From Oscillospiraceae bacterium (GTDB lineage: Bacteria; Bacillota; Clostridia; Oscillospirales; Ruminococcaceae): 64,000 bases of DNA. The notes under the pieces were generated by a model. It worked only from the letters and a program-made list of their open reading frames with translations. It had not been told where the DNA came from and did no database searches. Position numbers and translations under genes: made by a program. The stretch's first letter is position 1; every line of letters starts with the position of its first letter. The stretch covers positions 50,830 to 114,829 of the forward strand of contig JAUNSK010000011.1 in the NCBI GenBank assembly GCA_030539275.1. The letters run 5' to 3'. Positions 19,704 to 46,532 of the stretch are shown in pieces.

Positions 19704-20165
19704 ATGCCAAAATTCAAAGACATCCTAAAATCCGCCGGTCTTTCAAACCTTAAACTTTCCCTTCCGTTTCTGGAAATGGAACTAACCCTTAATCAGGCTG
19801 ACCGTGATGCAGCGTGGGAGCTTTACATAGAACTGTCCACACGCTGTGCAACTCAGTCAGTTGATGAATCATCGCAGGACAACAGAGAAGCAATAACAAG
19901 CTTATACACTCTGTTCCCTATCACAAGAGAAATACTTAAGAAGTACAAATGTGACTGCATTAACTTCAGTAAAATAGCTATCCCTGTCCTTAATCAGGTT
20001 TTAAGGCCGTTTGTTTCAAAATGGCACAAGTTTGATATGGAGCACAGGAATGACGTGAGCTGTGACTGGGGAAATTTCAGAGAAGAGCTGGAAGAAATTC
20101 AGACAACACTTAAAGACTATACAGGATTATTATGTGAACTTGCACGAGTTGAAGACTTGTCATAA
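19704..20165 (+). CDS. Unknown 153-residue cytosolic protein, copy A
   Basis: Not recognised as a named family. 153 residues, helix-rich, without signal peptide or membrane segment. It starts MPKFKDILKSAGLSNLKL, contains DRDAAWELYIELSTR and ends LARVEDLS. It is nearly identical to the 153-residue protein at 22586-23047, with differences mostly in the first residue and in the last 30 residues. It is transcribed from copy A of the repeated promoter-leader cassette, ends in its own terminator, and is followed by a secreted BspA-like protein, as is copy B. Confidence 0.85.
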   Translation: MPKFKDILKSAGLSNLKLSLPFLEMELTLNQADRDAAWELYIELSTRCATQSVDESSQDNREAITSLYTLFPITREILKKYKCDCINFSKIAIPVLNQVLRPFVSKWHKFDMEHRNDVSCDWGNFREELEEIQTTLKDYTGLLCELARVEDLS

Positions 20166-22438: not shown

Positions 22439-22585
22439 TTGACTGTCTCCCCCCAACCATCTATAATAGAACTATGATACAAATGTCCTACCACACCAGA
22501 TATTTCACAATATACACCAATCCCAACCGAGACAAAACATCTGATATTGAGTATCAAATGTACAGCATATAAAAGGAGCACTCCA
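22439..22585 (+). promoter_or_regulatory. Promoter-leader cassette, copy B
   Basis: TTGACT (22439-22444), 17 bases, TATAAT (22462-22467), then AAATGTCCTACCACACCA, a diverged AGACAAAACAT block and AAAAGGAG before ATG 22586. In the 5' gap a weak hairpin (AGTTCACA/TGTGAACT, 22193-22227) may end the preceding gene. The stretch 22236-22380 shows nothing that I can support. Confidence 0.8.
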
Positions 22586-23047
22586 ATGTCAAAATTCAAA
22601 GACATCCTAAAATCCGCCGGCCTTTCAAACCTTAAACTTTCCCTTCCATTTCTGGAAATGGAACTGACCCTTAATCAGGCTGACCGTGACGCAGCGTGGG
22701 AGCTTTACATAGAACTGTCAACCCGCTGTGCAACACAGTCAGTTGATGAATCGTCACAGGACAACAGAGAAGCAATTACCAGCTTGTACACTCTGTTTCC
22801 TATCACAAGAGAAATACTTAAAAAATACAAGTGTGACTGCATTAACTTCAGTAAGATAGCTATCCCTGTCCTTAATCAGGTTTTAAGGCCTTTTGTTTCA
22901 AAATGGCACAAATTTGATATGGAGCACAGAAATGATGTAAGCTGCGACTGGGGAAATTTCAGAGAAGAATTAGAGGCTATCCAGAAGACAATGAAAGACT
23001 ATACAAAATTATTATGTGAACTTGCAAGAGTTGAAGATCTGTCTTAA
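22586..23047 (+). CDS. Unknown 153-residue cytosolic protein, copy B
   Basis: Near-identical paralogue of the protein at 19704-20165. The start chosen is ATG 22586 (MSKFKDILKS), preceded by AAAAGGAG. Most differences from copy A are silent or lie near the C-terminus (EAIQKTMKDYTKLL against EEIQTTLKDYTGLL), so the duplication is recent or maintained by conversion. The function is unknown. A membrane-anchored BspA-like protein starts 58 bases downstream with no terminator between, so these two are probably cotranscribed. Confidence 0.85.
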   Translation: MSKFKDILKSAGLSNLKLSLPFLEMELTLNQADRDAAWELYIELSTRCATQSVDESSQDNREAITSLYTLFPITREILKKYKCDCINFSKIAIPVLNQVLRPFVSKWHKFDMEHRNDVSCDWGNFREELEAIQKTMKDYTKLLCELARVEDLS

Positions 23048-23105
23048 AAAAAAATAACAAAGCTGAATTTCATAAATAATCATGATATTTTACAGGAGAC
23101 ATGAT

Positions 23106-23702
23106 ATGAACAAGAAAATAATATTAATAATTACACTGGTCTTTGTTGGGGGGATGTTGTTTGGATTCGGCAGACGTGCTATCCAAAGACCCGGAAGAAC
23201 CGCTCTGAAAACAATTAGAACATCTTTCCTTAGCAGTTATGTAGAATACAAATGGCAAATAGGATCACCTGTGGACAGCCGTGTCAATGCAGTATTAAAG
23301 TTTGACAACGATGACCTGGTACTTACCTGTTCCGGCACCGGTGCAATGAAGGACTATGATCCGGAAAAATTATCTTTTGACTGGTACCGCCTTTATGATA
23401 AAGATGAGGGCTGGTCAACCAGTATTGACAAGATACATGTTGATGAAGGCATAATACTGATAGGCAGCTATGATTTTGCACTTATGGACCTTACAAAAGA
23501 AATCTATCTCCCGTCCACTCTTAAAACAATAAAGAAAGATGCATTTGGAGTTTCAAAGGATTGTATTATTTATTATAACGCAACCATTTCGGATTGGAAT
23601 AAGCTTGATTTAGAAGAAGGCTGGGATTGTTCGGATACAATTTCTAAAATTAACTGTACCGATGGTATTGTAGAGGTTCAAAAAGCAGCCGATAATCAGT
23701 AA
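23106..23702 (+). CDS. Small membrane-anchored BspA-like protein, copy 1
   Basis: 198 residues from ATG 23106 (AGGAG seven bases upstream). An N-terminal membrane helix (about residues 4-20) anchors an extracytoplasmic domain with BspA-family features: LVLTCSGTGAMKDYD, then IDKIHVDEGIILIGSYDF, EIYLPSTLKTIKKDAF and a closing DWNKLDLEEGW..INCTDGIVEV. This is about one LRR_5 unit plus the family's cap. It has a paralogue at 24811-25401 with the same architecture. It probably shares the transcript of the preceding 153-residue gene. Its role could be surface binding or sensing, but that is inference. Confidence 0.82.
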   Translation: MNKKIILIITLVFVGGMLFGFGRRAIQRPGRTALKTIRTSFLSSYVEYKWQIGSPVDSRVNAVLKFDNDDLVLTCSGTGAMKDYDPEKLSFDWYRLYDKDEGWSTSIDKIHVDEGIILIGSYDFALMDLTKEIYLPSTLKTIKKDAFGVSKDCIIYYNATISDWNKLDLEEGWDCSDTISKINCTDGIVEVQKAADNQ

Positions 23703-23933: not shown

Positions 23934-24695
23934 ATGGACAAATTAAACTGGCTGATTGATTATCTTATAAATGAATATGATACAGTCCCTGATATTCCCG
24001 AATGTGATAACGAGTTTGATAAATTCCGCTGTCTTATAAATATCAGAAGACCGGCACCGATTAGTGATGAGTTTATAAAGATTCAGAATGAAGTCCTTCA
24101 GGAAATTAATTCTTCAAGAGAAATAGCTGACATAGAAGATATGAAGCCTGTAAAAGATAATCTGTATATCTGGCAGGGTGATATAACTGCTCTGAAGATA
24201 GATGCCATAGTCAATGCTGCAAACAAGGAAATGACAGGCTGTTATCGTCCGATGCATAAGTGCATTGACAACTGTATACATACGTATTCGGGAGTTCAGC
24301 TGAGACTTCAGTGTGCAGCGATAATGGAAGATCAGATGCATCCTGAATATACAGGCTTTGCAAAAATAACAAGTGCGTATAATCTTCCAAGCAGATATGT
24401 AATACATACTGTAGGACCTATTGTCTGTGAGGAAAGCGGCCCTACTGAAAATGACTGCAACCTTCTTAGAAACTGTTATCTGTCATGTCTCTATACAGCA
24501 AGACAGTTTGATCTTCGTTCGATAGCGTTCTGCTGTATTTCTACCGGGCTGTTTCATTTTCCAAACAGACAGGCAGCTCAGATCGCAATCGAAACAGTAT
24601 CCAGTTTTCTTACAGAACACCACAGCAGAATGAAAGTATTATTTAATGTCTTCACTGATGAAGACCTGAATATTTACAAAGAACTACTGGTATAA
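23934..24695 (+). CDS. Zinc-type macrodomain protein, probable protein-ADP-ribose hydrolase
   Basis: 253 residues. A helical N-terminal part (1-70) precedes a macrodomain (about 75-250). ADP-ribose-binding features include LYIWQGDITALKIDAIVNAAN and, near the end, CCISTGLFHFPN. The loop GCYRPMHKCIDNCIHTYSG, with Cys and His residues, matches the zinc-containing macrodomains that remove ADP-ribose from proteins. It is cytosolic. Expression comes from copy C of the cassette that also drives the two 153-residue genes, which suggests a shared pathway. A terminator follows, then a second small BspA-like gene. Confidence 0.9.
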   Translation: MDKLNWLIDYLINEYDTVPDIPECDNEFDKFRCLINIRRPAPISDEFIKIQNEVLQEINSSREIADIEDMKPVKDNLYIWQGDITALKIDAIVNAANKEMTGCYRPMHKCIDNCIHTYSGVQLRLQCAAIMEDQMHPEYTGFAKITSAYNLPSRYVIHTVGPIVCEESGPTENDCNLLRNCYLSCLYTARQFDLRSIAFCCISTGLFHFPNRQAAQIAIETVSSFLTEHHSRMKVLFNVFTDEDLNIYKELLV

Positions 24696-24810: not shown

Positions 24811-25401
24811 ATGAAAAGAAAAAACCGTATTTTAATTGACTTAGCTGTAATACTTGTTCTTATCCTTGGTGTTACATTATACTGCCTTCACCGCCCCGGA
24901 TATCCGATACTATACAAAATCAGCGATACACCTCTTAACCGGATGGTAAAATACACATGGAATGTTGGTACTCCTGATAAAAAGGACATCAAAGCCGTTT
25001 GTAAGTTTGACAACAATGACTTTATTCTGTCCTGCTCCGGAACAGGGGCTATGATGGATTTTGATAGAGTAAACCGTGTAGATGCATGGAATATTCTTAA
25101 TAATATAACAACCGGGTGGGCTGTAAATATTGACAGAGTTTACGTTAATGAAGGAATAACATCAATTGGCACCAATGAATTCAAATGGTTCATTGAAACA
25201 AAAGAAGTTTACCTGCCAAGCACTCTTATAAGCATAAAAGAAGGAGCAATGGACTTTGGCTATGATACTAAGGTTTACTACAACTCTACCGTTGAAGACT
25301 GGAATCGTATAGACCTCGATGAAGAGTGGCAGCGCGGCAACTGGATCACTCAGATAAACTGCACTGATGGTATCGTTGAAATACCGCGTAAAATATATTA
25401 A
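24811..25401 (+). CDS. Small membrane-anchored BspA-like protein, copy 2
   Basis: 196 residues; AAGGAG precedes the ATG. N-terminal membrane helix (about residues 8-26), then FILSCSGTGAMMDFD, IDRVYVNEGITSIGTNEF, EVYLPSTLISIKEGAM and INCTDGIVEI. The layout is the same as in the protein at 23106-23702, to which it is clearly paralogous though diverged. It follows the macrodomain gene after a terminator. Confidence 0.82.
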   Translation: MKRKNRILIDLAVILVLILGVTLYCLHRPGYPILYKISDTPLNRMVKYTWNVGTPDKKDIKAVCKFDNNDFILSCSGTGAMMDFDRVNRVDAWNILNNITTGWAVNIDRVYVNEGITSIGTNEFKWFIETKEVYLPSTLISIKEGAMDFGYDTKVYYNSTVEDWNRIDLDEEWQRGNWITQINCTDGIVEIPRKIY

Positions 25402-25420: not shown

Positions 25421-25657
25421 TTATTCCTCACCCTGTAATTCATTGTAGATTCGTATCATCGTATCACGGTCAATTACACCGTGAAGATAATCCCTGAGGA
25501 GCTGACCGTAATTAATAAATCCTGATTTTTCGGCTTCGAGCGCCTTCATAACTGCAGCCTTTTTCTCATTAAGCTTTCTGTCAGCATATGAAAGAGTTTC
25601 ATCTCCCCGCTCATACTCTATAGTACCAGATTCAAAATCAATGATCATTGTGTCCAT
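25421..25657 (-). CDS. Unknown 78-residue protein, last gene of the VirD4/ClpP cluster
   Basis: Not recognised. Start chosen at ATG 25657 (MDTMIIDFESGTIEY), with GGAGG eight bases upstream; an upstream extension to 25702 would run through a hairpin. The small charged protein has a predicted helical middle (DRKLNEKKAAVMKALEAEKSG) and no membrane segment. It lies about 100 bases after the VirD4-like gene, with two hairpins between. It may be an adaptor or accessory protein of that cluster. Confidence 0.65.
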   Translation of the reverse strand: MDTMIIDFESGTIEYERGDETLSYADRKLNEKKAAVMKALEAEKSGFINYGQLLRDYLHGVIDRDTMIRIYNELQGEE

Positions 25658-25673
25658 ATATATATCCTCCATT

Positions 25674-25753
25674 ACAGGTATGCATTCCGGCTGCGGATGC
25701 ATACCTGTTTTATTTAACGTTTAGTCATAACCTGATGCTAAGATACAGGTTAT
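25674..25753. repeat. Two adjacent hairpins between the VirD4-like gene and the 78-residue gene
   Basis: The first hairpin pairs ACAGGTATGCAT (25674-25685) with ATGCATACCTGT (25697-25708) and ends four bases before the minus-strand ribosome site of the 78-residue gene. The second pairs ATAACCTG (25727-25734) with CAGGTTAT (25746-25753). Read on the plus strand the first one is followed by TTTTATTT and could terminate transcription from the BspA-like gene. On the minus strand neither has a T-run, so they may be processing or stability elements. Confidence 0.65.
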
Positions 25754-25760
25754 CTGTCAT

Positions 25761-27113
25761 TTATGATCTGTTATCTTTGCTGCTCTCCTGTTTTTGATCA
25801 TCCTTAGTCTGCTGCTGATTTCTGTGGCCTTTTGCCGGATGATCGCCAAGCTCTGAAATATCATAACCGCTCAGATCTATAGTCTGAGAAAACTCAGGCT
25901 GCTCACCGCGTCTTATTATCCAGTTAGTGCCTACAGGCATACTCAGTATTTTTGACAAAGGCTTGTTGCAGCGTACAGATACCATTTGTGCTGTCTCAGT
26001 ATCATTTCCTCCCATATAGATCATGGTATCACAGTTATCAATGATCGTATGTGCACTGTCTGAGTAGCCGGCAACAAGCTGAGTTGTTGACTGAAGAATG
26101 ATCATTGCGGAAATGTCCCTCGAGCGGATATTTGAGATCATGTTCTGAAATCCGTCGATACGGCAGTTTGTTCCGAAGTCGTCAAGGATGAATCTTACCG
26201 GAACAGGAAGTCTGCTGTCACTGCAGCATTCGTCCGCATATGAACAAAGCAGGTTCATAGCCTGGGAGTAAAAGATATTTGCAAGTGTATCCTTTGATCT
26301 GTCTGTATCACTTATCTCCACAAATACTATCGTTGGGATCAGTCCGAGAGACGAAATGTCGATGTCATTTCTGCTGAGCATTGTGCGTATTTCCAGAGTA
26401 TCGAGATCCGAGAGAATAGTCTGCAGCGTTATAATTATGCAGCTCATAGTCTTTTTTGGAACCTGACAGAATTTTCTGAATTGTTTATATGCCCAGCTGT
26501 GATCACCGGTTATTCTCCGGTATTTTTCTCTGAAGCTGTTAAATCTGAAATCTATTTCGCACGACTCATTACATTCCCATTTCTCAACATCAATTTCTGA
26601 AAGGATCACAGAAATATCATTAAAATTGCTGCGCTCTCCTAACTGCCTGCGCTCAGCAAGATAGCCGGTTATTGCTGTCAGCAGAAGTTCTGAGGCTCTG
26701 TCCCAGAACGGGTCGTAACTTCCGCCTCGTTCACTTCCGGCATAGATGAGCTGGTGTGCAAACTTCTGTACTTCGTTCGGAGTACGCACACAGCTGAGCG
26801 GATTGTAGTGATCAGAGAGTTCAGGATGGATAAGGTTAAGGTGCAGAATGTTATATCCCTGTCGGCTCATAACATCTGACCACTTACTGTACAGATTGCC
26901 TTTGGTGTCAGATACTATGTAGCTGCCGGATGCCGCCAGAATATTCGGTACAACTACACTTCTTGTCTTTCCTGCCCCGGAGCCTGCAATGACAAGCATA
27001 TTATTATTAAGCCTTGTTTCCCTCGTATCGAGGCTTATTGTTTTACCGTTCGGGAGAACGGCACTTTTTTCATTATGTGCTTTTGTTATAGCAAGTGATT
27101 TGTTTTCTGACAT
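25761..27113 (-). CDS. Soluble VirD4/TraG-like coupling ATPase
   Basis: 450 residues from ATG 27113 (AAAGGAG seven bases upstream). Walker A is VIAGSGAGKTRSVVVPN (near residue 45), followed by SYIVSDTKGNLY, and Walker B is VRFILDDFGTN (near residue 305). The TraG/VirD4 segment ISAMIILQSTTQL and the late MIYMGGNDTETAQMVS are also present. Family members in conjugation carry N-terminal membrane helices; none is seen here, and no relaxase or other type IV secretion gene lies nearby. It could be a remnant of an integrative element or an ATPase reused for another task. It directly follows a ClpP-like gene. Confidence 0.9.
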   Translation of the reverse strand: MSENKSLAITKAHNEKSAVLPNGKTISLDTRETRLNNNMLVIAGSGAGKTRSVVVPNILAASGSYIVSDTKGNLYSKWSDVMSRQGYNILHLNLIHPELSDHYNPLSCVRTPNEVQKFAHQLIYAGSERGGSYDPFWDRASELLLTAITGYLAERRQLGERSNFNDISVILSEIDVEKWECNESCEIDFRFNSFREKYRRITGDHSWAYKQFRKFCQVPKKTMSCIIITLQTILSDLDTLEIRTMLSRNDIDISSLGLIPTIVFVEISDTDRSKDTLANIFYSQAMNLLCSYADECCSDSRLPVPVRFILDDFGTNCRIDGFQNMISNIRSRDISAMIILQSTTQLVAGYSDSAHTIIDNCDTMIYMGGNDTETAQMVSVRCNKPLSKILSMPVGTNWIIRRGEQPEFSQTIDLSGYDISELGDHPAKGHRNQQQTKDDQKQESSKDNRS

Positions 27114-27126
27114 ATGATCATCTCCT

Positions 27127-27759
27127 TTAATCAAATATGTTTCTTATCCCGTCACAAATACCGAAGCTTACTGCTTCATCTGAGTTCATAAAGTTATCAT
27201 GTACAGTTACCTCGTTTATCTCATCTTCTGTTTTGCCTGTATGCTTTGCAATAAGTCCGTTTACGAGTGACTTGATATCCAGAATAGCCTTAGCTGTATT
27301 TTCTATTGTTGTAGCAGAGCCACCCAGCCCCCCGGCTATAAGCGGTTCATGGATCATAACTCTGGAATGAGGAAGTATAAATCTTCTCCCCTTCTGACCG
27401 CCTGCAAGAAGAACAGCTGCCATACTCGCTGCTGTACCTGTGCAGTACATATTTATCTGAAACTTATATGACTGAATGATATCATACATAAGAAGTCCTG
27501 AATATACTTCACCGCCCGGACTGTTTATATAAATATCCACAGGCTTTTGCTCATCTGAAAGATGAAGCATCGCCGCAGCAAAATGATCAGCTGTTTTCAT
27601 ATTGATCTCATCATCGATAAAAATACGTCCGTTTGAAAGATGCAGCGCATCAAGAGACAACGTGCAGTATCCCTTTGCATCCTCAGTTACTGTATTTTCA
27701 GCTATAGAACAGCGATACTCCTGTGTGTCTGACTTGCCTGTAAAATTATCCTTTTTCAT
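27127..27759 (-). CDS. ClpP-like serine peptidase
   Basis: 210 residues. The ClpP fold is visible in IDDEINMKTADHFAAAML and IYINSPGGEVYSG, with the nucleophile in YCTGTAASMAA (Ser near 109), the His in SRVMIHEP (near 135) and the Asp in TVHDNFMNSDEA (near 187), so the triad is intact. The first about 28 residues are an extension unlike housekeeping ClpP, and no Clp ATPase is adjacent. Its immediate downstream neighbour is a VirD4-like ATPase 13 bases away. It is probably a specialised paralogue, or is related to phage or mobile-element ClpP proteases. Confidence 0.9.
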   Translation of the reverse strand: MKKDNFTGKSDTQEYRCSIAENTVTEDAKGYCTLSLDALHLSNGRIFIDDEINMKTADHFAAAMLHLSDEQKPVDIYINSPGGEVYSGLLMYDIIQSYKFQINMYCTGTAASMAAVLLAGGQKGRRFILPHSRVMIHEPLIAGGLGGSATTIENTAKAILDIKSLVNGLIAKHTGKTEDEINEVTVHDNFMNSDEAVSFGICDGIRNIFD

Positions 27760-27851
27760 ATTTTTTCTCCTCCTGGTATTTCCGGATTTTCTTCGTTTGA
27801 CCGTAAGTTTATTGTACCAGCAACAGCTGCTTGAAGCAAACCGTCTTTCAT
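27756..27851 (-). CDS. Short leader ORF overlapping the clpP-like start
   Basis: 31 codons from ATG 27851, with GAGGA upstream. It begins MKDGLLQAAVAG and ends PGGEKI, and its TGA overlaps the ATG of the ClpP-like gene in ATATGA. The ClpP ribosome site lies inside it. It could be a small protein or a translated leader for coupling. There is no homology that I recognise. Confidence 0.45.
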   Translation of the reverse strand: MKDGLLQAAVAGTINLRSNEENPEIPGGEKI

Positions 27852-27914
27852 GAGAGTATCCTCACGAAAAAAAGCAGCGCCTGTAAACACCGCATTTACA
27901 GACGCACAGATACA

Positions 27915-27952
27915 AAAAAATCATCTTTTTTTTAATCAGGAGATGATTTTTT
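27915..27952 (-). terminator. Terminator between the HTH-repeat gene and the ClpP-like gene
   Basis: AAAAAATCATCT (27915-27926) pairs with AGATGATTTTTT (27941-27952), with a T7 run on the minus-strand exit. It lies 12 bases after the HTH-repeat gene's stop. It separates the helicase/HTH half from the ClpP/VirD4 half unless it is read through. Confidence 0.85.
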
Positions 27953-27963
27953 CATATTTATAT

Positions 27964-29367
27964 TTAATTGTTTTCATGAACCATTTTATACATCTTCTTT
28001 ATAACCGGATTAAGATCATACATGGAGTGTACAGCAATAATAAACAGAGCCCACATGATCCAGTCCTGTGATGTAAAACGCAGCTTGCACTCAATGATAT
28101 CAAAGTCAAAAATACCGTCAAGCGTTCTGAAAGTATGTTTTCGCTCCTGCTTTACCCCTTTACTGTCCTGTACCGGTTCATCCTTATACAGATCATAAAG
28201 ACTGCAGTTTCGTGTCATCACAGAAAGCATGAAACAGCTTGATGCCTCTTCAAAGCAGCTGTCATGTTCTTTCCATCCAGGCTGCGGCATCACAAGATTA
28301 TCTCTGAGCTCCTCAAAAATAATTTCCTGCCGGACTTCATTCAGCTTTCTGAACAACTCCAGAGCAGGATACAGATATTCAAAAACATCTATACCTATAT
28401 ACTCATATACGTTATTAACCGAAACCTCACCAAGCTCTTCAGGGATACGATACTTGTTTATGTAATTCCAGAACGGCTCAGCATCAAGAGGGTCTGTGAT
28501 TATATGAGTCATAACTATATCCTGAAGCTTTGAAGGCAGAAGCCTGAACCGCCTGATCACCTCATCTGATACCGGTTCATCAGTATCATGTTCACTTTGG
28601 AGCATATCCCCTAAGTTCCGAAGCAGTATTTCATTTTTTATCTCCTGCTCATTTTCTCCGCGGATCCCGCAATCAAATTCTGACTTGACGATATGCAGGA
28701 TTTTCTCTTTTATATCGTAGTCATAGGGACAGTCGTTGTCACATAGCAGATCTGTAAGGTCATCAGGAGTTACACCTGCCTTCTGAGCTAATTGTTCTTT
28801 TGTTACCCGGATGCGCCTGTCTTTTAACAGATTGTCGAGATACTGTGCAAACTTAGTCGTAATAAACCATGGACGGTTTTTCCCCATAGCCACATAAATT
28901 TCATCCCTGAATTCACGCATTTCAGGAAGACATGTACCCAGATCATCAAAGCAGGAACAGAAAAATACATTAAGTATTTCATACTGCTTTACAACATCAA
29001 CACTTCTGAGAAATGTCTTTTTCTGAAGCATGAGACTTATTTCATTCGGACTAAGCCCTGCGCTTTCAGCGAGAGCCGCACAGGTGATTCTGCCACCGGA
29101 TCTGTTAAGCAGTTTACACAGCAGATCACCGAAATCTTCAGCATTCATAAACGTGTATCCCTGATAATATATACGGCTTCGAACATACCGCTCTATTTTG
29201 CGCTTATCTGTCCGGGTGCAGCATCCGTCCTCATAGTACTCGCCGATACGTCTGCTGTTTATCTGAGTCCCTTTTGCAATTTCTGTTTTAATTATGTTGT
29301 ACTTACTTTTCAAAGTACCGAGCCATGCTTTGTATTCATAGGCATTAAATGATTCGTCTGTTATCAT
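27964..29367 (-). CDS. Unknown protein with repeated helix-turn-helix-like segments
   Basis: 467 residues from ATG 29367 (GGAGG ten bases upstream); a longer frame to 29451 would overlap the helicase gene. The N-terminal half holds three modules of similar pattern, each a helix-turn-helix-like motif: EIAKGTQINSRRIGEYYE, ALAESAGLSPNEISLMLQ and QLAQKAGVTPDDLTDLL. The C-terminal half is helical and unrecognised. It is probably a DNA- or RNA-associated regulator or adaptor. It starts 27 bases after the stop of the large helicase gene and should share its transcript, then a terminator follows. Confidence 0.75.
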   Translation of the reverse strand: MITDESFNAYEYKAWLGTLKSKYNIIKTEIAKGTQINSRRIGEYYEDGCCTRTDKRKIERYVRSRIYYQGYTFMNAEDFGDLLCKLLNRSGGRITCAALAESAGLSPNEISLMLQKKTFLRSVDVVKQYEILNVFFCSCFDDLGTCLPEMREFRDEIYVAMGKNRPWFITTKFAQYLDNLLKDRRIRVTKEQLAQKAGVTPDDLTDLLCDNDCPYDYDIKEKILHIVKSEFDCGIRGENEQEIKNEILLRNLGDMLQSEHDTDEPVSDEVIRRFRLLPSKLQDIVMTHIITDPLDAEPFWNYINKYRIPEELGEVSVNNVYEYIGIDVFEYLYPALELFRKLNEVRQEIIFEELRDNLVMPQPGWKEHDSCFEEASSCFMLSVMTRNCSLYDLYKDEPVQDSKGVKQERKHTFRTLDGIFDFDIIECKLRFTSQDWIMWALFIIAVHSMYDLNPVIKKMYKMVHENN

Positions 29368-29393
29368 TTCAGCATTTCCTCCGGTGGAGTTTC

Positions 29394-32300
29394 TTATGAC
29401 ATCTGATCGATTATTTCCATTGCTCTTTTCAGGTACGTGTTTTTTTGCCATACTTTCTCAGATCTGTCTCCAACAATATATAATCTGAACTTTGCTCTTG
29501 TTACAGCAACATTTACTATGTTTGAATTGACCCACTTTACAGCACCCTCGCTCGATTCATCACAGCCCAGAAGGAAGATCACCTCAAAGGTCTCCTTCCC
29601 CTGAAATGTATGGACAGTCCCTATATTTCTCCTGAGAAAAATATCAAAATCTTTTTCATCTATGTCAATATCCCATTTTTTATATTCATATTCAAGAGCT
29701 TTTGTTATACCGGCAACGACAGATTTAAACGGAGAAATTATATAGACCTTCGGTACTCTATTAATCTTTACATCTTCTTCATTATCTGACTGAGTGACCT
29801 GTTCACAGACTGCATTGATATTTTTAAAAGCAGTTCTTACTATCTCAAATACTGCTTTACTCTGAGCACTGACATAATGATCCTTGTTTCCTGTTTCCCT
29901 GCCCTTTACATCGATCCATCGTGAACTGTCGTAAACAAAGTTTTTCTCATCCTTCTCCTTCGGCTGCTCTGTCTGCTGCTTCATAAATCCATCATAGGAT
30001 ACGGAGTTTGATATATCATACATCGGAGAAATGCATCTTCTGTGTACAAGCAGAGGACAGCCTATCCATTCGGGTTCATCATTTTCACCGTTCAGATATG
30101 TACCGAATTTGTTCATTCTGTCCGCAAAATTCTGAACAGATAATGACTTGTCTCTGTACCGTGCAAGCACTTCATCCTTAAATGAATATTTAAGCAGATC
30201 AAGCTCATCGGTAACAACAGGTTCAACCTGCTTGGGATCGCCGACTATCATGGCTCTGCGGCTTCTGAATAAAGCTCCCACAAGACATTCCGGACTAGCC
30301 TGACCTGCTTCATCAACAATCAGTGTGCCTATAGTGTCCTGTTTTCTTACGTCCTGAAACATACGTCCTATCGAAGCAAAGGTTGATGATATGACAGGAA
30401 CAACCAGGAACAGAGTCTGAAAAAGTGCAGGGACAATTTCCAGTGCTTCATTCTTATCAAAAGTTATTGATTTTTTCCCTGTATCGGCTAGCAGCTTCCA
30501 GTACTGAGATAATGATCTGAGATTGTCTCTGCATGAACCTGAAGCAAGTACAAAGCTTTTATGAAGCTGCATGGCATAGAAAAAAAGCTTTTCTCTTTGC
30601 GTGTCATATGCCTTTGTAAGCCATGGATTTACAAGCTGGGCTTTTGTTGATTTATTCTTATCCCTGCTTTGTATCTGAGCTATAAGTTCACTGTCTGCTT
30701 TTTTATAGAAAAGTTCCTCCGGCAGTTTACTTATGCTGTATTCGTTATACACAGAAACTGTCTGTTCACACTCTTTCTTCTGGTTTAAAAGCTTTTGCAG
30801 AGCACTATTATTGTCAGCTTTCTGCTTTGACAGCTTTTCTGTATTTATTTCTGATAATTCAAGATTTTTCTGTGCATCTGAAATTTCCTCTGACAGCTTA
30901 TTTATCTGTGCAGTAAGATCATCGGCAGCATTTTTCTTCTCTTGTATATCTTCACTCAGCTGTGAGATCATACTCTCGTACTGCTTCATGAGGGCATGTC
31001 TGTCAGCTGATGTTCCTTTTGAACAGAAAAGTTTTTTAATAAATCCTGTTATACCCGGTGTAAGAGCCTGTTCCAGCAGCTCAGCTTTTTTCCGGTTAAG
31101 CTCTGCAAGTTCTTTTTTTGCATCCCTGGTCTCCTGCTCAAGAGCACTGAGCTTTGCATCACATTCACAGGCTTTGTCCTTTGCGTCAGAAATAGCTTTT
31201 TTATACTTATCAGTACTTTGTTCATATAATGATCTCTGGTCGTTCAGGCTCTCATTTTGTTTATGAAGTTCACTTTCATCTTTTTCAAAAAAACCGCTTT
31301 CAAGCTTTTTCTTTGCTGCAGTATAACTGCTTTCAATCTTCTTCATTTTATCAATATCGGATGACATCTGCCTGCGCATATCCTCAACTTTATCAAGCTG
31401 TGCGGTAAACAACTCCCTGATCTTCAGATATTCTTTTTTCCTGCTTTCCATATCAGTGTTTTTGCTGTTGTACTGATCAAAAATAATATTACTGAGTGCT
31501 TTAAAATAAAAATCAGATATGTTGCTTTTTTTTCCGAGTGCAGCTGCAACGAGTCCCCATGCCGGAACCACCTTTTCTGTACTGCTTATAAGATTTGTAG
31601 CATACTGAGAAAAATAAACATCAGGTTTCTCAACAAATTCTTTGTTTTGTGCCTTGACCTTAAGACTAAACTGCGTATCCTTTACAGCAAACATTTTTCT
31701 GACTTCTTCGTATCCGTTATATGATTTTGTTTTTGTCTTTTCATCTGTGGGAGGTTTTTTTCCGGTCTGTGCATTTTTCTTACCCGGTTCATCTTTTCGG
31801 GAAAATGAATCCACAGGCAGTTCCTTTGTAATATTTTCAACTGCTGCATTGTTGCATGAGGTCACAAGTATTCCGTAGTCATTTATCCGGTCGTTTTTCA
31901 GCGTGTACCAGTTTGAAACATTAGCGGAATACTGATTGTTTTTTTCTTTTCCGTTTATAAATTTATGACTTTCAAATGCATCATCAGGCAGATCGTAAGC
32001 ACTCAGAAGACGTGCCCTTTCAACGATATTGTTTACAACGATCTCCTTGAGCAAAGTGGATTTACCTGTTCCCGGAGGTCCGTTTACAGAGAATACATTT
32101 CCTGCCGGACCATCTCTTTTTATTTCAAGATTTATGGCTGTCTCCTGCATTAGCGCAGGCATAAATTCTGAAGGCCACTTTCCCGGAGGCGCATTCTTTA
32201 TATCCAGAATACTGTCAAATATTTTAAGGAGAGTCTTTCCGTCTGAGTTTACAAGGTCTGCCCTGCCACACTTGTTCTCATCTTCCGTATTAAGAATATT

Positions 32301-33131
32301 AAGATAGCTTATAAGTTCCGGTTTCAGATTTCCGCAGTTGTATGCGTCTGCTGCCAGCTCAAGATCACTTGTATAAAATGATTTTGACAATCCGAGATAT
32401 GTATCATCATCTTTCTTTGCTTTCACAATTTCGTCCTTATATATCCTGAAAGAGAAAATAAATTCGTCCTTTGCATCCCCGCCGGTAATACAGCTGCCGT
32501 ATGCAGACCTGAGATCCTCATATATTTTTGTCAGATCCCATAGAGTCTTGTCATCTGTCTGAGAATAATATTTTCTTTCTAATTTGTCCATATCGCTTTT
32601 ATACGTGTCATGTGACAACAGCCTCAGCTTGTCATCACAGTCTTTATTGCTGGTTATCCGTGAGATCGCCCACAGCACAGGAGACACTGAAATGCTGTGT
32701 TCAACATATTCACCGTCCGGTTTTAGCTGCAGTGCAGCAAGGCAGATACTGTCAGCAGATCTTTCAGGATGCGAGGCTTCATTAATAACTGTACCGAGAG
32801 CCCTTGCCGTCTCGTTCAGACATGCCTCTCTTGAAAAGCATCCAAGATAAACTGTTACATCTGAGCATTCAGAAAAATCAAATTTTCTGAGTTCATATTT
32901 AATAACGCTCCTGACGGCACCTGCACTTAATTTTTTAATATCATCCCGGACCATTTCCACTATATCTGACTTTTTATATTTCTCTTCGATTTCATTGTTT
33001 TTCAGATCATTTTCATATTTGATTTTTTGTTTGTGACAGTCACGGAATCTTTGCACAGGATATGCTTCCTGCTCAAGAAAGTTCAGAGTGTACCAATACT
33101 GAAGTATTGTTTTAGCTGCATCTGAGGTCAT
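29394..33131 (-). CDS. Large SF1 helicase (COG1112/Dna2-Nam7-like) with internal coiled coil
   Basis: 1245 residues from ATG 33131 (AAAGGAG five bases upstream). Motif I is VNGPPGTGKSTLL (near residue 354), motif II LIVDEAGQASPE (near 940), motif III MIVGDPKQVEPV, and motif VI NVAVTRAKFRLYIVG (near 1210). A long charged coiled coil of about 220 residues (about 565-790) separates motif I from motif II. The N-terminal 300 residues are unrecognised. SF1B enzymes of this kind act on DNA or RNA and occur in several anti-phage systems. It is the first gene of the minus-strand cluster, with its own promoter. There is no nuclease motif that I can identify. Confidence 0.9.
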   Translation of the reverse strand: MTSDAAKTILQYWYTLNFLEQEAYPVQRFRDCHKQKIKYENDLKNNEIEEKYKKSDIVEMVRDDIKKLSAGAVRSVIKYELRKFDFSECSDVTVYLGCFSREACLNETARALGTVINEASHPERSADSICLAALQLKPDGEYVEHSISVSPVLWAISRITSNKDCDDKLRLLSHDTYKSDMDKLERKYYSQTDDKTLWDLTKIYEDLRSAYGSCITGGDAKDEFIFSFRIYKDEIVKAKKDDDTYLGLSKSFYTSDLELAADAYNCGNLKPELISYLNILNTEDENKCGRADLVNSDGKTLLKIFDSILDIKNAPPGKWPSEFMPALMQETAINLEIKRDGPAGNVFSVNGPPGTGKSTLLKEIVVNNIVERARLLSAYDLPDDAFESHKFINGKEKNNQYSANVSNWYTLKNDRINDYGILVTSCNNAAVENITKELPVDSFSRKDEPGKKNAQTGKKPPTDEKTKTKSYNGYEEVRKMFAVKDTQFSLKVKAQNKEFVEKPDVYFSQYATNLISSTEKVVPAWGLVAAALGKKSNISDFYFKALSNIIFDQYNSKNTDMESRKKEYLKIRELFTAQLDKVEDMRRQMSSDIDKMKKIESSYTAAKKKLESGFFEKDESELHKQNESLNDQRSLYEQSTDKYKKAISDAKDKACECDAKLSALEQETRDAKKELAELNRKKAELLEQALTPGITGFIKKLFCSKGTSADRHALMKQYESMISQLSEDIQEKKNAADDLTAQINKLSEEISDAQKNLELSEINTEKLSKQKADNNSALQKLLNQKKECEQTVSVYNEYSISKLPEELFYKKADSELIAQIQSRDKNKSTKAQLVNPWLTKAYDTQREKLFFYAMQLHKSFVLASGSCRDNLRSLSQYWKLLADTGKKSITFDKNEALEIVPALFQTLFLVVPVISSTFASIGRMFQDVRKQDTIGTLIVDEAGQASPECLVGALFRSRRAMIVGDPKQVEPVVTDELDLLKYSFKDEVLARYRDKSLSVQNFADRMNKFGTYLNGENDEPEWIGCPLLVHRRCISPMYDISNSVSYDGFMKQQTEQPKEKDEKNFVYDSSRWIDVKGRETGNKDHYVSAQSKAVFEIVRTAFKNINAVCEQVTQSDNEEDVKINRVPKVYIISPFKSVVAGITKALEYEYKKWDIDIDEKDFDIFLRRNIGTVHTFQGKETFEVIFLLGCDESSEGAVKWVNSNIVNVAVTRAKFRLYIVGDRSEKVWQKNTYLKRAMEIIDQMS

Positions 33132-33225
33132 ATTTTCTCCTTTATACATAGAGCCTTTTATACTGATAGGATCCTTAAGTTTTGTAAACAATATTATCCG
33201 CCTTTTTTACCTGTAATCATGTTTT

Positions 33226-46046: not shown

Positions 46047-46059
46047 GATAAAAAAGAAA

Positions 46060-46132
46060 TGGGAACAATAGGGCTCGAACCTATGACCCTCTGCTTGTAA
46101 GGCAGATGCTCTCCCAGCTGAGCTATGCTCCC
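46060..46132 (-). tRNA. tRNA-Val (anticodon TAC)
   Basis: 73-base cloverleaf. The acceptor GGGAGCA pairs with TGTTCCC, the anticodon loop is CTTACAA and the T-arm is TAGGTTCGAGCCCTA. CCA is not encoded. It is the last of five tRNAs in one minus-strand cluster and identical in sequence to the first. Confidence 0.97.
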
Positions 46133-46167
46133 ATTTTTGTTGTTGCCCAGTCTTAATGACTGGAAAG

Positions 46168-46238
46168 AGGCGCCAGCCGGATTTGAACCGGCGATCAAGG
46201 TGTTGCAGACCTACGCCTTACCACTTGGCTATAGCGCC
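46168..46238 (-). tRNA. tRNA-Cys (anticodon GCA)
   Basis: 71 bases. The acceptor GGCGCTA pairs with TGGCGCC (one G-T pair), the anticodon loop is CTGCAAC and the T-arm is CCGGTTCAAATCCGG. CCA is not encoded. Confidence 0.97.
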
Positions 46239-46245
46239 TTATAAG

Positions 46246-46318
46246 AGCGGATTACGAGGCTCGAACTCGCTACCTCCACCTTGGCAAGGTGGCGCTCTAC
46301 CAGATGAGCTAAATCCGC
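46246..46318 (-). tRNA. tRNA-Gly (anticodon GCC)
   Basis: 73 bases. The acceptor GCGGATT pairs with AATCCGC, the anticodon loop is TTGCCAA and the T-arm is CGAGTTCGAGCCTCG. CCA is not encoded. Confidence 0.97.
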
Positions 46319-46327
46319 AATGAAAAA

Positions 46328-46401
46328 CGACCTGGATGGGAATCGAACCCACGACCTCTAGCGTGACAGGCTAGCGTTCTAACCGGCTGAACTACCAGGC
46401 C
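46328..46401 (-). tRNA. tRNA-Asp (anticodon GTC)
   Basis: 74 bases. The acceptor GGCCTGG pairs with CCAGGTC (one G-T pair), the anticodon loop is CTGTCAC, the T-arm is TGGGTTCGATTCCCA and the discriminator is G. CCA is not encoded. Confidence 0.97.
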
Positions 46402-46409
46402 AAAAATAA

Positions 46410-46482
46410 TGGGAACAATAGGGCTCGAACCTATGACCCTCTGCTTGTAAGGCAGATGCTCTCCCAGCTGAGCTATGCTCCC
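46410..46482 (-). tRNA. tRNA-Val (anticodon TAC), second copy
   Basis: Same 73-base sequence as the tRNA at 46060-46132. It is first in the cluster order Val-Asp-Gly-Cys-Val. Confidence 0.97.
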
Positions 46483-46532
46483 ATCATTATTCCGGGACTA
46501 AAAATTTACCATAAATCCCGAGAACATGATTA

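What the first reader, a model, noticed from the sequence alone, without database searches (positions are those of the whole stretch)
25421..33191. Helicase / HTH-repeat / ClpP-like / VirD4-like cluster: candidate undescribed system
Five or six minus-strand genes with tight spacing combine a 1245-residue SF1 helicase with an internal coiled coil, a protein with three HTH-like modules, a ClpP-like peptidase with intact triad, a VirD4/TraG-type ATPase lacking membrane helices, and a 78-residue protein. No relaxase, integrase or other type IV secretion gene is present, and no Clp ATPase. A protease next to a DNA-pumping type ATPase is not a standard conjugation or housekeeping layout. It could be a stripped integrative element, or a defence or DNA-processing system in which the soluble ATPase feeds the peptidase. 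The grouping is seen; the function is inference.
Basis: partly seen in the sequence, partly recalled or inferred. Interest (0 to 1): 0.78.

Follow-up and report, generated by a model that had tools for sequence, protein, structure and literature searches.

The report
ClpP protease paired with conjugation-type ATPase
Many gut bacteria carry a two-gene unit that pairs a specialised ClpP protease with a cytosolic ATPase derived from DNA-transfer machinery, which looks like an undescribed kind of ATP-driven protease whose job is still unknown.

Summary
Of 154 distinct VirD4-family genes examined, 110 have Asp instead of the second Walker B acid Glu; 100 of these have ClpP beside them, against 1 of 43 with Glu (one gene unclassed). 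The paired ClpPs keep the catalytic triad (S 70/70, H 70/70, D 67/70) but their ClpX/ClpC-docking face is remodelled (aromatic at position 82: 0/70, versus 29/29 other ClpPs). They are split from ordinary ClpP by a fully supported branch. The genome's only PF03432 relaxase sits beside its membrane VirD4 on another contig. The HTH gene is a recurrent neighbour with a terminator before clpP; the helicase and the small ORF were found at none of the other loci searched. Best reading: a dedicated cytosolic ATPase-ClpP machine whose ring ATPase comes from conjugation. Physical coupling and biological role are inferred; no structure could be predicted (queue full, 19 attempts). Local enrichment of defence genes was tested and not seen. 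Eight paper searches found no description.

The parts
27127..27759 (-). ClpP-type peptidase of the VirD4-paired clade (core gene 1)
   Evidence: Pfam CLP_protease 3e-51; triad kept, docking face changed; on the paired side of the ClpP tree
25761..27134 (-). Soluble VirD4/TraG-like ATPase with Walker B LDD instead of LDE (core gene 2); its ORF overlaps the clpP stop by 8 bases
   Evidence: NCBIfam CD1115 VirD4 309 bits; no TM-like segment, D319 as in 70 of 70; ClpP beside 100 of 110 such genes
27811..27819 (-). Extended -10 promoter-like site (TGG TACAAT) before clpP-virD4
   Evidence: read; terminator followed by a -10 in 12 of 17 gaps scanned, shuffles mean 0.3, max 3
27877..27905 (-). Intrinsic-terminator-like hairpin between the HTH gene and clpP
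27964..29451 (-). Protein with degenerate HTH modules; recurrent upstream neighbour, possibly a regulator or adaptor
   Evidence: 8 of 8 non-self matches of this one sequence in 297 genomes lie within 2 kb upstream of a soluble virD4 on the same strand; two further distant members found with a profile do not
29394..33191 (-). SF1 (AAA_11/AAA_12) helicase with internal coiled-coil-like stretch; local neighbour, not a conserved part
   Evidence: PADLOC MkoC 3.9e-58; not found at other clpP-virD4 loci
25421..25702 (-). Small orphan ORF (78 aa from an internal ATG); not a conserved part
   Evidence: no family; not found at other loci

Best explanation
The core is a dedicated two-component machine: a ClpP barrel whose unfoldase-docking face has been remodelled, working with a cytosolic ring ATPase that descends from conjugative coupling proteins (VirD4) and has lost its membrane anchor. 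Most likely the VirD4-like ring sits on the ClpP barrel in place of ClpX/ClpC and, in an ATP-dependent way, gates it or threads substrate into it. The Walker B Glu-to-Asp change suggests slow, switch-like ATP turnover rather than a fast pump. A variable third gene (multi-HTH, macro+HTH, a ~250-aa family X, or a YbjN-like protein) may supply regulation or substrate choice. SHOWN: conserved gene pair, intact catalytic residues, altered docking positions, class-specific Walker B change, correlated divergence of the two proteins. INFERRED: ring and barrel assembly, physical contact, direction of substrate flow, role of the third gene, biological function.
For: Adjacency: 100 of 110 Asp-type VirD4 genes have ClpP within 1.6 kb on the same strand, against 1 of 43 Glu-type (Fisher p 8e-27); median clpP-to-virD4 ORF gap 4 bp, 77 of 88 at most 50 bp. 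Catalysis kept: S 70/70, H 70/70, D 67/70 (3 Asn). Docking face changed: position 82 is Tyr/Phe in 29/29 other ClpPs and aromatic in 0/70 paired; position 28 is Ile in 28 of 28 rows that cover it, but Lys/Glu/Arg in 46 of 70 paired; E14 in 28 of 28 versus 0 of 70, R15 in 28 of 28 versus 6 of 70. PMC6110781 and PMC12521514 (passages) place the pocket and hairpin in the unfoldase interface. Paired and other ClpPs are split by a 100/100 branch of length 1.23; the two partners' distance matrices correlate, r 0.77 (2000 permutations, max 0.115), 0.40 among distant pairs only (1000 permutations, max 0.128). Walker A Lys and D318 70/70; D319 70/70 versus Glu 41/41 in membrane VirD4. TM-like segment in 3/70 soluble and 40/41 membrane forms.
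Against: No structure or complex could be modelled. No ORF matched both profiles, so there is no natural fusion among the loci in hand. Ten Asp-type VirD4 genes lack an adjacent ClpP: two are cut by a contig end (L091, L095), one has stops inside (L041), and two whose flanks were read further (L237, L238) have family X directly upstream and no ClpP within about 3-5 kb, so VirD4 may act without its own ClpP. Walker B Asp may mean weak hydrolysis, which fits poorly with processive unfolding. One Glu-type VirD4 (L219) also has a ClpP. The correlated divergence is expected of any two genes inherited together. The docking pocket is remodelled, not erased: position 62 is still Tyr in 38 and Phe in 11 of 70, and position 90 has become Tyr/Phe in 28 of 70. 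Glu-type loci had a median of only 1.1 kb beyond the ORF on each side, 6 of 41 less than 0.7 kb on one side, so a more distant ClpP would have been missed.
Confidence: 0.6

Rival explanations
1. Signal-activated (defence-type) protease: VirD4 is a sensor of incoming DNA or of a phage or plasmid protein; on binding it opens ClpP, which degrades host or invader proteins. This would parallel SIR2-HerA, where a ring ATPase is paired with an effector enzyme. The third genes are sensors or immunity parts.
For: Patchy accessory distribution (39 of 396 family genomes at E below 1e-105, up to four copies per genome); one locus in a Slackia genome (L115), another phylum by general knowledge; Walker B signature; among 43 upstream proteins scanned, Pfam TIR_2 in 1, kinase in 2, Card1-like in 1, Macro in 5; MkoC-like helicase beside the window copy; SIR2-HerA pairs confer phage resistance (PMC11514479, passages).
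Against: PADLOC models matched by genes within 2 kb were not more numerous than by genes more than 5.5 kb away (50 versus 65 models, 127 proteins each). Neither core protein is a confident match to a PADLOC model. Some copies sit among housekeeping or metabolic genes.
Confidence: 0.25
2. Decayed conjugative or integrative element: VirD4 is a truncated coupling protein and ClpP a passenger.
For: VirD4 passes the CD1115 conjugation model; integrase-like genes lie near a few copies (L158, L161, L165, read by eye); Resolvase/Recombinase families occur among neighbours.
Against: Conserved motifs, own clade, own Walker B state and conserved partner across 110 distinct genes; the genome's only PF03432 relaxase is on another contig; relaxase and type IV genes are not in the 25 rows shown for near or far neighbours (92 and 154 families in all, so most single matches are not shown).
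Confidence: 0.05
3. Regulatory proteolysis switch: the HTH or macro-HTH protein encoded next door is the substrate or repressor, and ClpP-VirD4 removes it on a signal (analogous to the ImmA-ImmR pairing, recalled).
For: HTH gene next to the pair in 8 of 8 non-self single-sequence matches; a macro+HTH family in 14 loci, 12 of them upstream on the same strand; gaps carry terminator plus promoter, a place for an operator.
Against: X and YbjN-like partners show no HTH match and overlap or abut clpP; of 90 pair loci scanned, 26 had no same-strand gene close upstream at all; two distant HTH relatives stand alone.
Confidence: 0.2

Closest known systems
ClpXP / ClpCP / ClpAP ATP-dependent proteases
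   Same: ClpP peptidase with intact triad next to an ATPase of a ring-forming class; possible adaptor-like third proteins
   Different: The ATPase is of the VirD4/TraG class (FtsK-HerA superfamily, recalled), not AAA+ Clp; docking pocket and N-terminal hairpin positions differ
VirD4/TraG type IV coupling proteins, CD1115 family (NF045973)
   Same: Profile match 309 bits; Walker A, D318, Q348 and Q352 conserved
   Different: No membrane segment, shorter N-terminus, Walker B DD not DE, ClpP partner, no PF03432 relaxase near the window copy
SIR2-HerA (GAO_19) defence pairs
   Same: Two-gene pairing of an effector enzyme with a ring ATPase of the HerA class (PMC11514479, passages)
   Different: Effector is ClpP not SIR2, ATPase is VirD4-like; no defence activity known; no sequence comparison with HerA was made here
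Mokosh MkoC / COG1112-like helicases (window neighbour only)
   Same: Helicase region matches PADLOC MkoC at 3.9e-58
   Different: No nuclease domain found by Pfam after the helicase core; not part of the conserved unit

Membership tests
Type IV coupling protein (VirD4/TraG, CD1115) | profile score above curated cut-off | tested here: met
   309.4 versus 250 bits
Type IV coupling protein (VirD4/TraG, CD1115) | N-terminal membrane helices | tested here: not met
   TM-like segment in 3/70 of the soluble class, none in the window protein; 40/41 in the membrane class (hydropathy only)
Type IV coupling protein (VirD4/TraG, CD1115) | Walker B DE (defined here from 41 membrane forms) | tested here: not met
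   Asp at the second acidic position 70/70; Glu 41/41 in the membrane class
Type IV coupling protein (VirD4/TraG, CD1115) | relaxase or transfer genes in the same element | tested here: not met
   only PF03432 relaxase of this genome is on contig C6 beside the membrane VirD4; other relaxase families and mating-pore genes were not searched genome-wide
ClpP proteolytic subunit of Clp proteases | Ser-His-Asp triad | tested here: met
   S 70/70, H 70/70, D 67/70; window has all three
ClpP proteolytic subunit of Clp proteases | hydrophobic pocket and N-terminal hairpin residues for IGF-loop ATPases | tested here: not met
   aromatic at 82 in 0/70, E14 in 0/70, R15 in 6/70; position 62 partly kept (Tyr 38, Phe 11 of 70)
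ClpP proteolytic subunit of Clp proteases | tetradecameric assembly and ATPase-dependent proteolysis | not testable with these tools
   no structure job accepted (19 attempts, machine busy)
Known anti-phage system (PADLOC-DB 2.0.0) | core genes match a system model | tested here: not met
   ClpP: no family; VirD4: only mad8 at 3.8e-4
SIR2-HerA (GAO_19) | SIR2 effector gene paired with HerA ATPase | not tested
   ClpP in the effector place; no direct comparison of VirD4 with HerA was run
Mokosh (MkoC), for the helicase | helicase core plus C-terminal PLD nuclease (recalled) | tested here: not met
   protein ends 22 residues after AAA_12; no nuclease in Pfam

The most novel reading that the evidence does not exclude
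A ClpP protease driven by a motor that is not AAA+: a coupling protein freed from the membrane and re-tuned at Walker B has replaced the Clp unfoldase, giving a new class of ATP-dependent compartmental protease, with exchangeable adaptors (including macro domains that could read ADP-ribosylation as a degradation mark).
Probability: 0.4. Interest if true: 0.92.

Novelty: categorically new. Interest (0 to 1): 0.8.

Why it matters
From general knowledge, the bacterial proteases known to use ClpP are fed by AAA+ Clp ATPases. A conserved ClpP whose docking face has changed, tied to a DNA-transfer-type ATPase, would be a second way to power or gate ClpP and would show how conjugation parts are re-used inside the cell. 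It was found in 39 of 396 sampled genomes of this family, and in named isolates such as Ruminococcus flavefaciens Y1 (L066) and Slackia equolifaciens DSM 24851 (L115), so it can be tested.

Tried and rejected
Helicase as part of the system: rejected, as no counterpart was found at other loci (many of these have short flanks) and its two relatives in 148 genomes lie on other contigs than the virD4 copies (drafts, and only the first few candidates per genome are scored). The 78/93-aa ORF: no relative at any locus searched. The L068 VirD4 N-terminal extension as a family X fusion: not supported by profile comparison. L219 (Glu-type VirD4 plus ClpP) as a second conserved lineage: its one close relative in 197 genomes (L221) shows no ClpP in its short flank, so it stays a single case. 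Defence-gene enrichment: tested with near and far neighbours, not seen. Phage origin: one IMG/VR contig (L171) carries the pair; by eye its surroundings resemble L099/L102 rather than a phage. A first regular-expression count of Walker B states was unusable and was replaced by a column read from a profile alignment. Literature: eight searches about the system showed no paper on a ClpP-VirD4 pair; two more looked for docking residues and found none. I saw listings only, except passages of PMC12521514, PMC6540193, PMC6110781 and PMC11514479. Subscription journals, preprints and supplements were not searched.

Rows left out or capped. One search kept the best 80 of 257 matches. Alignments A4/A5 hold the window plus 69 of the 74 pairs listed (L068, L074, L076, L077, L097 left out). 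A6 and A7 hold 127 of 140 sampled neighbours each (several macro-HTH genes, the second of some duplicate loci, and pair genes left out), so the Macro count is a lower bound. Fifteen short or duplicate loci were dropped before the upstream-gene list and 14 before the gap count. The 'other' ClpPs are the best ClpP of 29 genomes, taken as housekeeping by inference; only L002 was seen with its neighbours; a few came from ORFs with a stop or a contig cut; L213 was left out because it is a paired ClpP. The promoter scan left out L073, L074, L097, L159 and L161 and cut the L077 gap short where the clpP start was uncertain. G753 (L175) has the short class at only 1.4e-95, so the 39 of 396 at E below 1e-105 may be an undercount.
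Full report
WHAT IS THERE. The window is part of a 3.68-Mb genome in 49 contigs. Two details differ. One HTH module just reaches a curated Pfam cut-off; the others are weak. And the run is probably not one operon: between the HTH gene and clpP lie a terminator-like hairpin (27905-27877) and an extended -10-like site (27819-27811).

THE CONSERVED UNIT IS clpP-virD4. A search of 100 related genomes with the window VirD4 gave mostly long, ordinary coupling proteins, but three of the fetched loci (L004, L005, L012; ORFs of 510, 410 and 438 aa) had a ClpP gene directly beside them. Shortness alone was not the mark: L024 (511 aa) and L032 (447 aa) had none. A profile of the window protein and these three separated two classes in 396 family genomes: one, mostly 380-545 aa, at E below 1e-105 in 39 of 396 genomes (counted by hand from the table; up to four copies in one genome), and the usual class of about 600 aa at E above 1e-97. 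The one scan of genome contigs kept the best 80 of 257 matches, 79 loci, by their titles mostly Ruminococcus, Lachnospiraceae, Oscillospiraceae or unnamed Clostridia, with one Slackia and one Christensenellaceae. After removal of duplicates, 91 of 101 loci of the short class had clpP within 1.6 kb on the same strand. The final count over all loci in hand, sorted by the Walker B residue: Asp-type 100 with ClpP and 10 without; Glu-type 1 with and 42 without; one incomplete gene with ClpP not classed (154 genes, Fisher p 8e-27). The Glu-type loci had a median of 1.1 kb beyond the ORF on each side, less than 0.7 kb on one side in 6 of 41, enough to see a directly adjacent ClpP but not a more distant one. 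The clpP-to-virD4 ORF gap has a median of 4 bp, and 77 of 88 are at most 50 bp. clpP was upstream in 102 of 105 pairs before duplicates were removed. No ORF matched both profiles. Outside the family the pair is rarer: among 398 phylum genomes, at E up to 1e-85, two outside the family had the short class, both with ClpP.

THE ATPase HAS BEEN RE-TUNED. Membrane VirD4s have a median of 127 residues ahead of the point that is residue 34 of the window protein. TM-like segments occur in 3 of 70 soluble forms (not in the window) and 40 of 41 membrane forms. Walker A Lys, the first Walker B Asp and Q348 are kept in 70 of 70. The second Walker B residue, the catalytic Glu of this superfamily (general knowledge), is Glu in 41 of 41 membrane forms and Asp in 70 of 70 soluble ones. 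This is a class-defining change, not decay.

THE PEPTIDASE HAS A CHANGED DOCKING FACE. In 70 paired ClpPs the catalytic Ser and His are invariant and Asp is kept in 67 (Asn in 3). PMC6110781 (passages) names human CLPP L104, Y118, Y138 and W146 as residues of the pocket for ClpX; with an offset of 56 (my inference) these are positions 48, 62, 82 and 90 in the E. coli-type numbering used here. Position 82 is Tyr or Phe in 29 of 29 other ClpPs and aromatic in none of 70 paired ones. Position 28 goes from Ile (28 of 28 rows that cover it) to Lys, Glu or Arg in 46 of 70. E14 (28 of 28) is found in none of 70 and R15 (28 of 28) in 6 of 70; PMC12521514 (passages; numbered E15 and R16 there) lists both among the contacts between the ClpP hairpins that meet ClpC. 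Against a total loss: position 62 stays Tyr in 38 and Phe in 11 of 70, and position 90 has become Tyr or Phe in 28 of 70. So the pocket looks remodelled rather than erased. The 29 other ClpPs are each the best unpaired ClpP of their genome and are taken as housekeeping by inference. A tree puts all 70 paired ClpPs and all 30 others (29 plus B. subtilis) on opposite sides of a 100/100 branch of length 1.23, and the distance matrices of the two partners correlate at r 0.77 (2000 permutations, maximum 0.115), 0.40 for distant pairs alone (1000 permutations, maximum 0.128). That correlation shows long joint inheritance; it does not by itself show contact. The window genome has another clpP elsewhere, between genes that look like trigger factor and clpX (by eye).

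NEIGHBOURS. (a) The HTH protein: searched as a single sequence in 297 family genomes it found eight other places in seven genomes, and all eight lie within 2 kb upstream of a soluble virD4 on the same strand (one of the eight matches is weak, E 5e-4). A profile made from these (so the same hits return by construction) added two distant places in 392 genomes, neither with clpP or virD4 in the 10-12 kb read. (b) A family with a macro domain and HTH in 14 loci, 12 of them upstream on the same strand; some members are truncated, and Pfam Macro was reached by 5 of the 43 upstream proteins scanned. (c) Family X, about 250 residues, sometimes split, which overlaps or abuts clpP, and stands directly upstream of virD4 in three loci without clpP. 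(d) A family of five proteins that overlap the clpP start; Pfam YbjN was reached by two of the 43 upstream proteins scanned. In groups (a) and (b), 12 of 17 gaps scanned hold a terminator followed by a -10 site, against a mean of 0.3 and a maximum of 3 in 200 shuffles, so clpP-virD4 probably has its own promoter there; in (c) and (d) the genes overlap or abut, which suggests a closer part in the machine. The helicase and the small ORF were found at none of the other loci searched.

NOT CONJUGATION, NOT SHOWN TO BE DEFENCE. The genome's one PF03432 relaxase (C6:200242) lies beside its membrane VirD4 (C6:202822), on another contig than the window. Relaxase and transfer genes were not among the 25 Pfam rows shown for 127 near or 127 far neighbours, but those lists are cut from 92 and 154 families. 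PADLOC models matched were 50 near and 65 far, so there is no local enrichment of defence genes. The nearest parallel in print that I saw is SIR2-HerA, a defence pair of an effector enzyme and a ring ATPase (PMC11514479, passages), which keeps a defence reading open.

MECHANISM. I think it most likely (0.6) that the VirD4-like ring and the ClpP barrel form one cytosolic machine in which ATP binding or hydrolysis opens ClpP or feeds it substrate. That they work together in some way I would put at about 0.85. The Asp in Walker B argues for slow or switch-like turnover, so gating may be nearer the truth than fast threading. The biological purpose (regulation, conflict with mobile DNA, stress) stays open. 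Against: no model of the complex, no natural fusion, and ten soluble VirD4 genes without an adjacent ClpP.

NOVELTY. The pair fails tested defining features of both parent families (membrane segment, Walker B Glu and nearby relaxase for coupling proteins; docking positions and Clp ATPase neighbour for ClpP), matches no PADLOC model well, and eight searches of the held papers showed no account of it. If the machine is real it lies outside the known ATP-dependent proteases, hence 'categorically new'; if ClpP proves to be only co-regulated, or the pair proves to be a SIR2-HerA-like defence pair with another effector, the label should drop to a new variant.

Noticed in passing
window 19704-20165 and 22547-23047; 23082-23702 and 24811-25401: Two nearly identical proteins of about 153 aa and two LRR_5-like proteins that resemble each other alternate just left of the cluster, like a duplicated cassette.
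   Followed up: no
window 23934-24695 (+): Stand-alone macro-domain gene 0.7 kb beyond the cluster on the other strand; a macro+HTH family occurs beside clpP-virD4 in 14 other loci.
   Followed up: partly
L219 (6266-8674): A distant VirD4-like protein with Walker B Glu is also followed by a ClpP; its relative L221 shows no ClpP in a short flank.
   Followed up: partly
L117 (4990-9177): 1395-aa protein upstream of clpP-virD4 with a kinase-like N-terminus by eye; it may be the member behind one Pkinase and the Card1-like match, which does not name members.
   Followed up: no
L130, L138, L141, L142 (gene before clpP): Four of the five YbjN-like proteins end in a tail with TDLF followed by a Gly-containing stretch; the fifth (L144) has MDPF there.
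   Followed up: no
window 46059-46483: Five-tRNA cluster with two tRNA-Val(TAC) genes of equal Rfam score.
   Followed up: no
G285 (C34, C40, C61, C156); L081; L118: One genome holds four diverged soluble VirD4 copies; L081 and L118 each hold two clpP-virD4 pairs within about 10 kb.
   Followed up: partly
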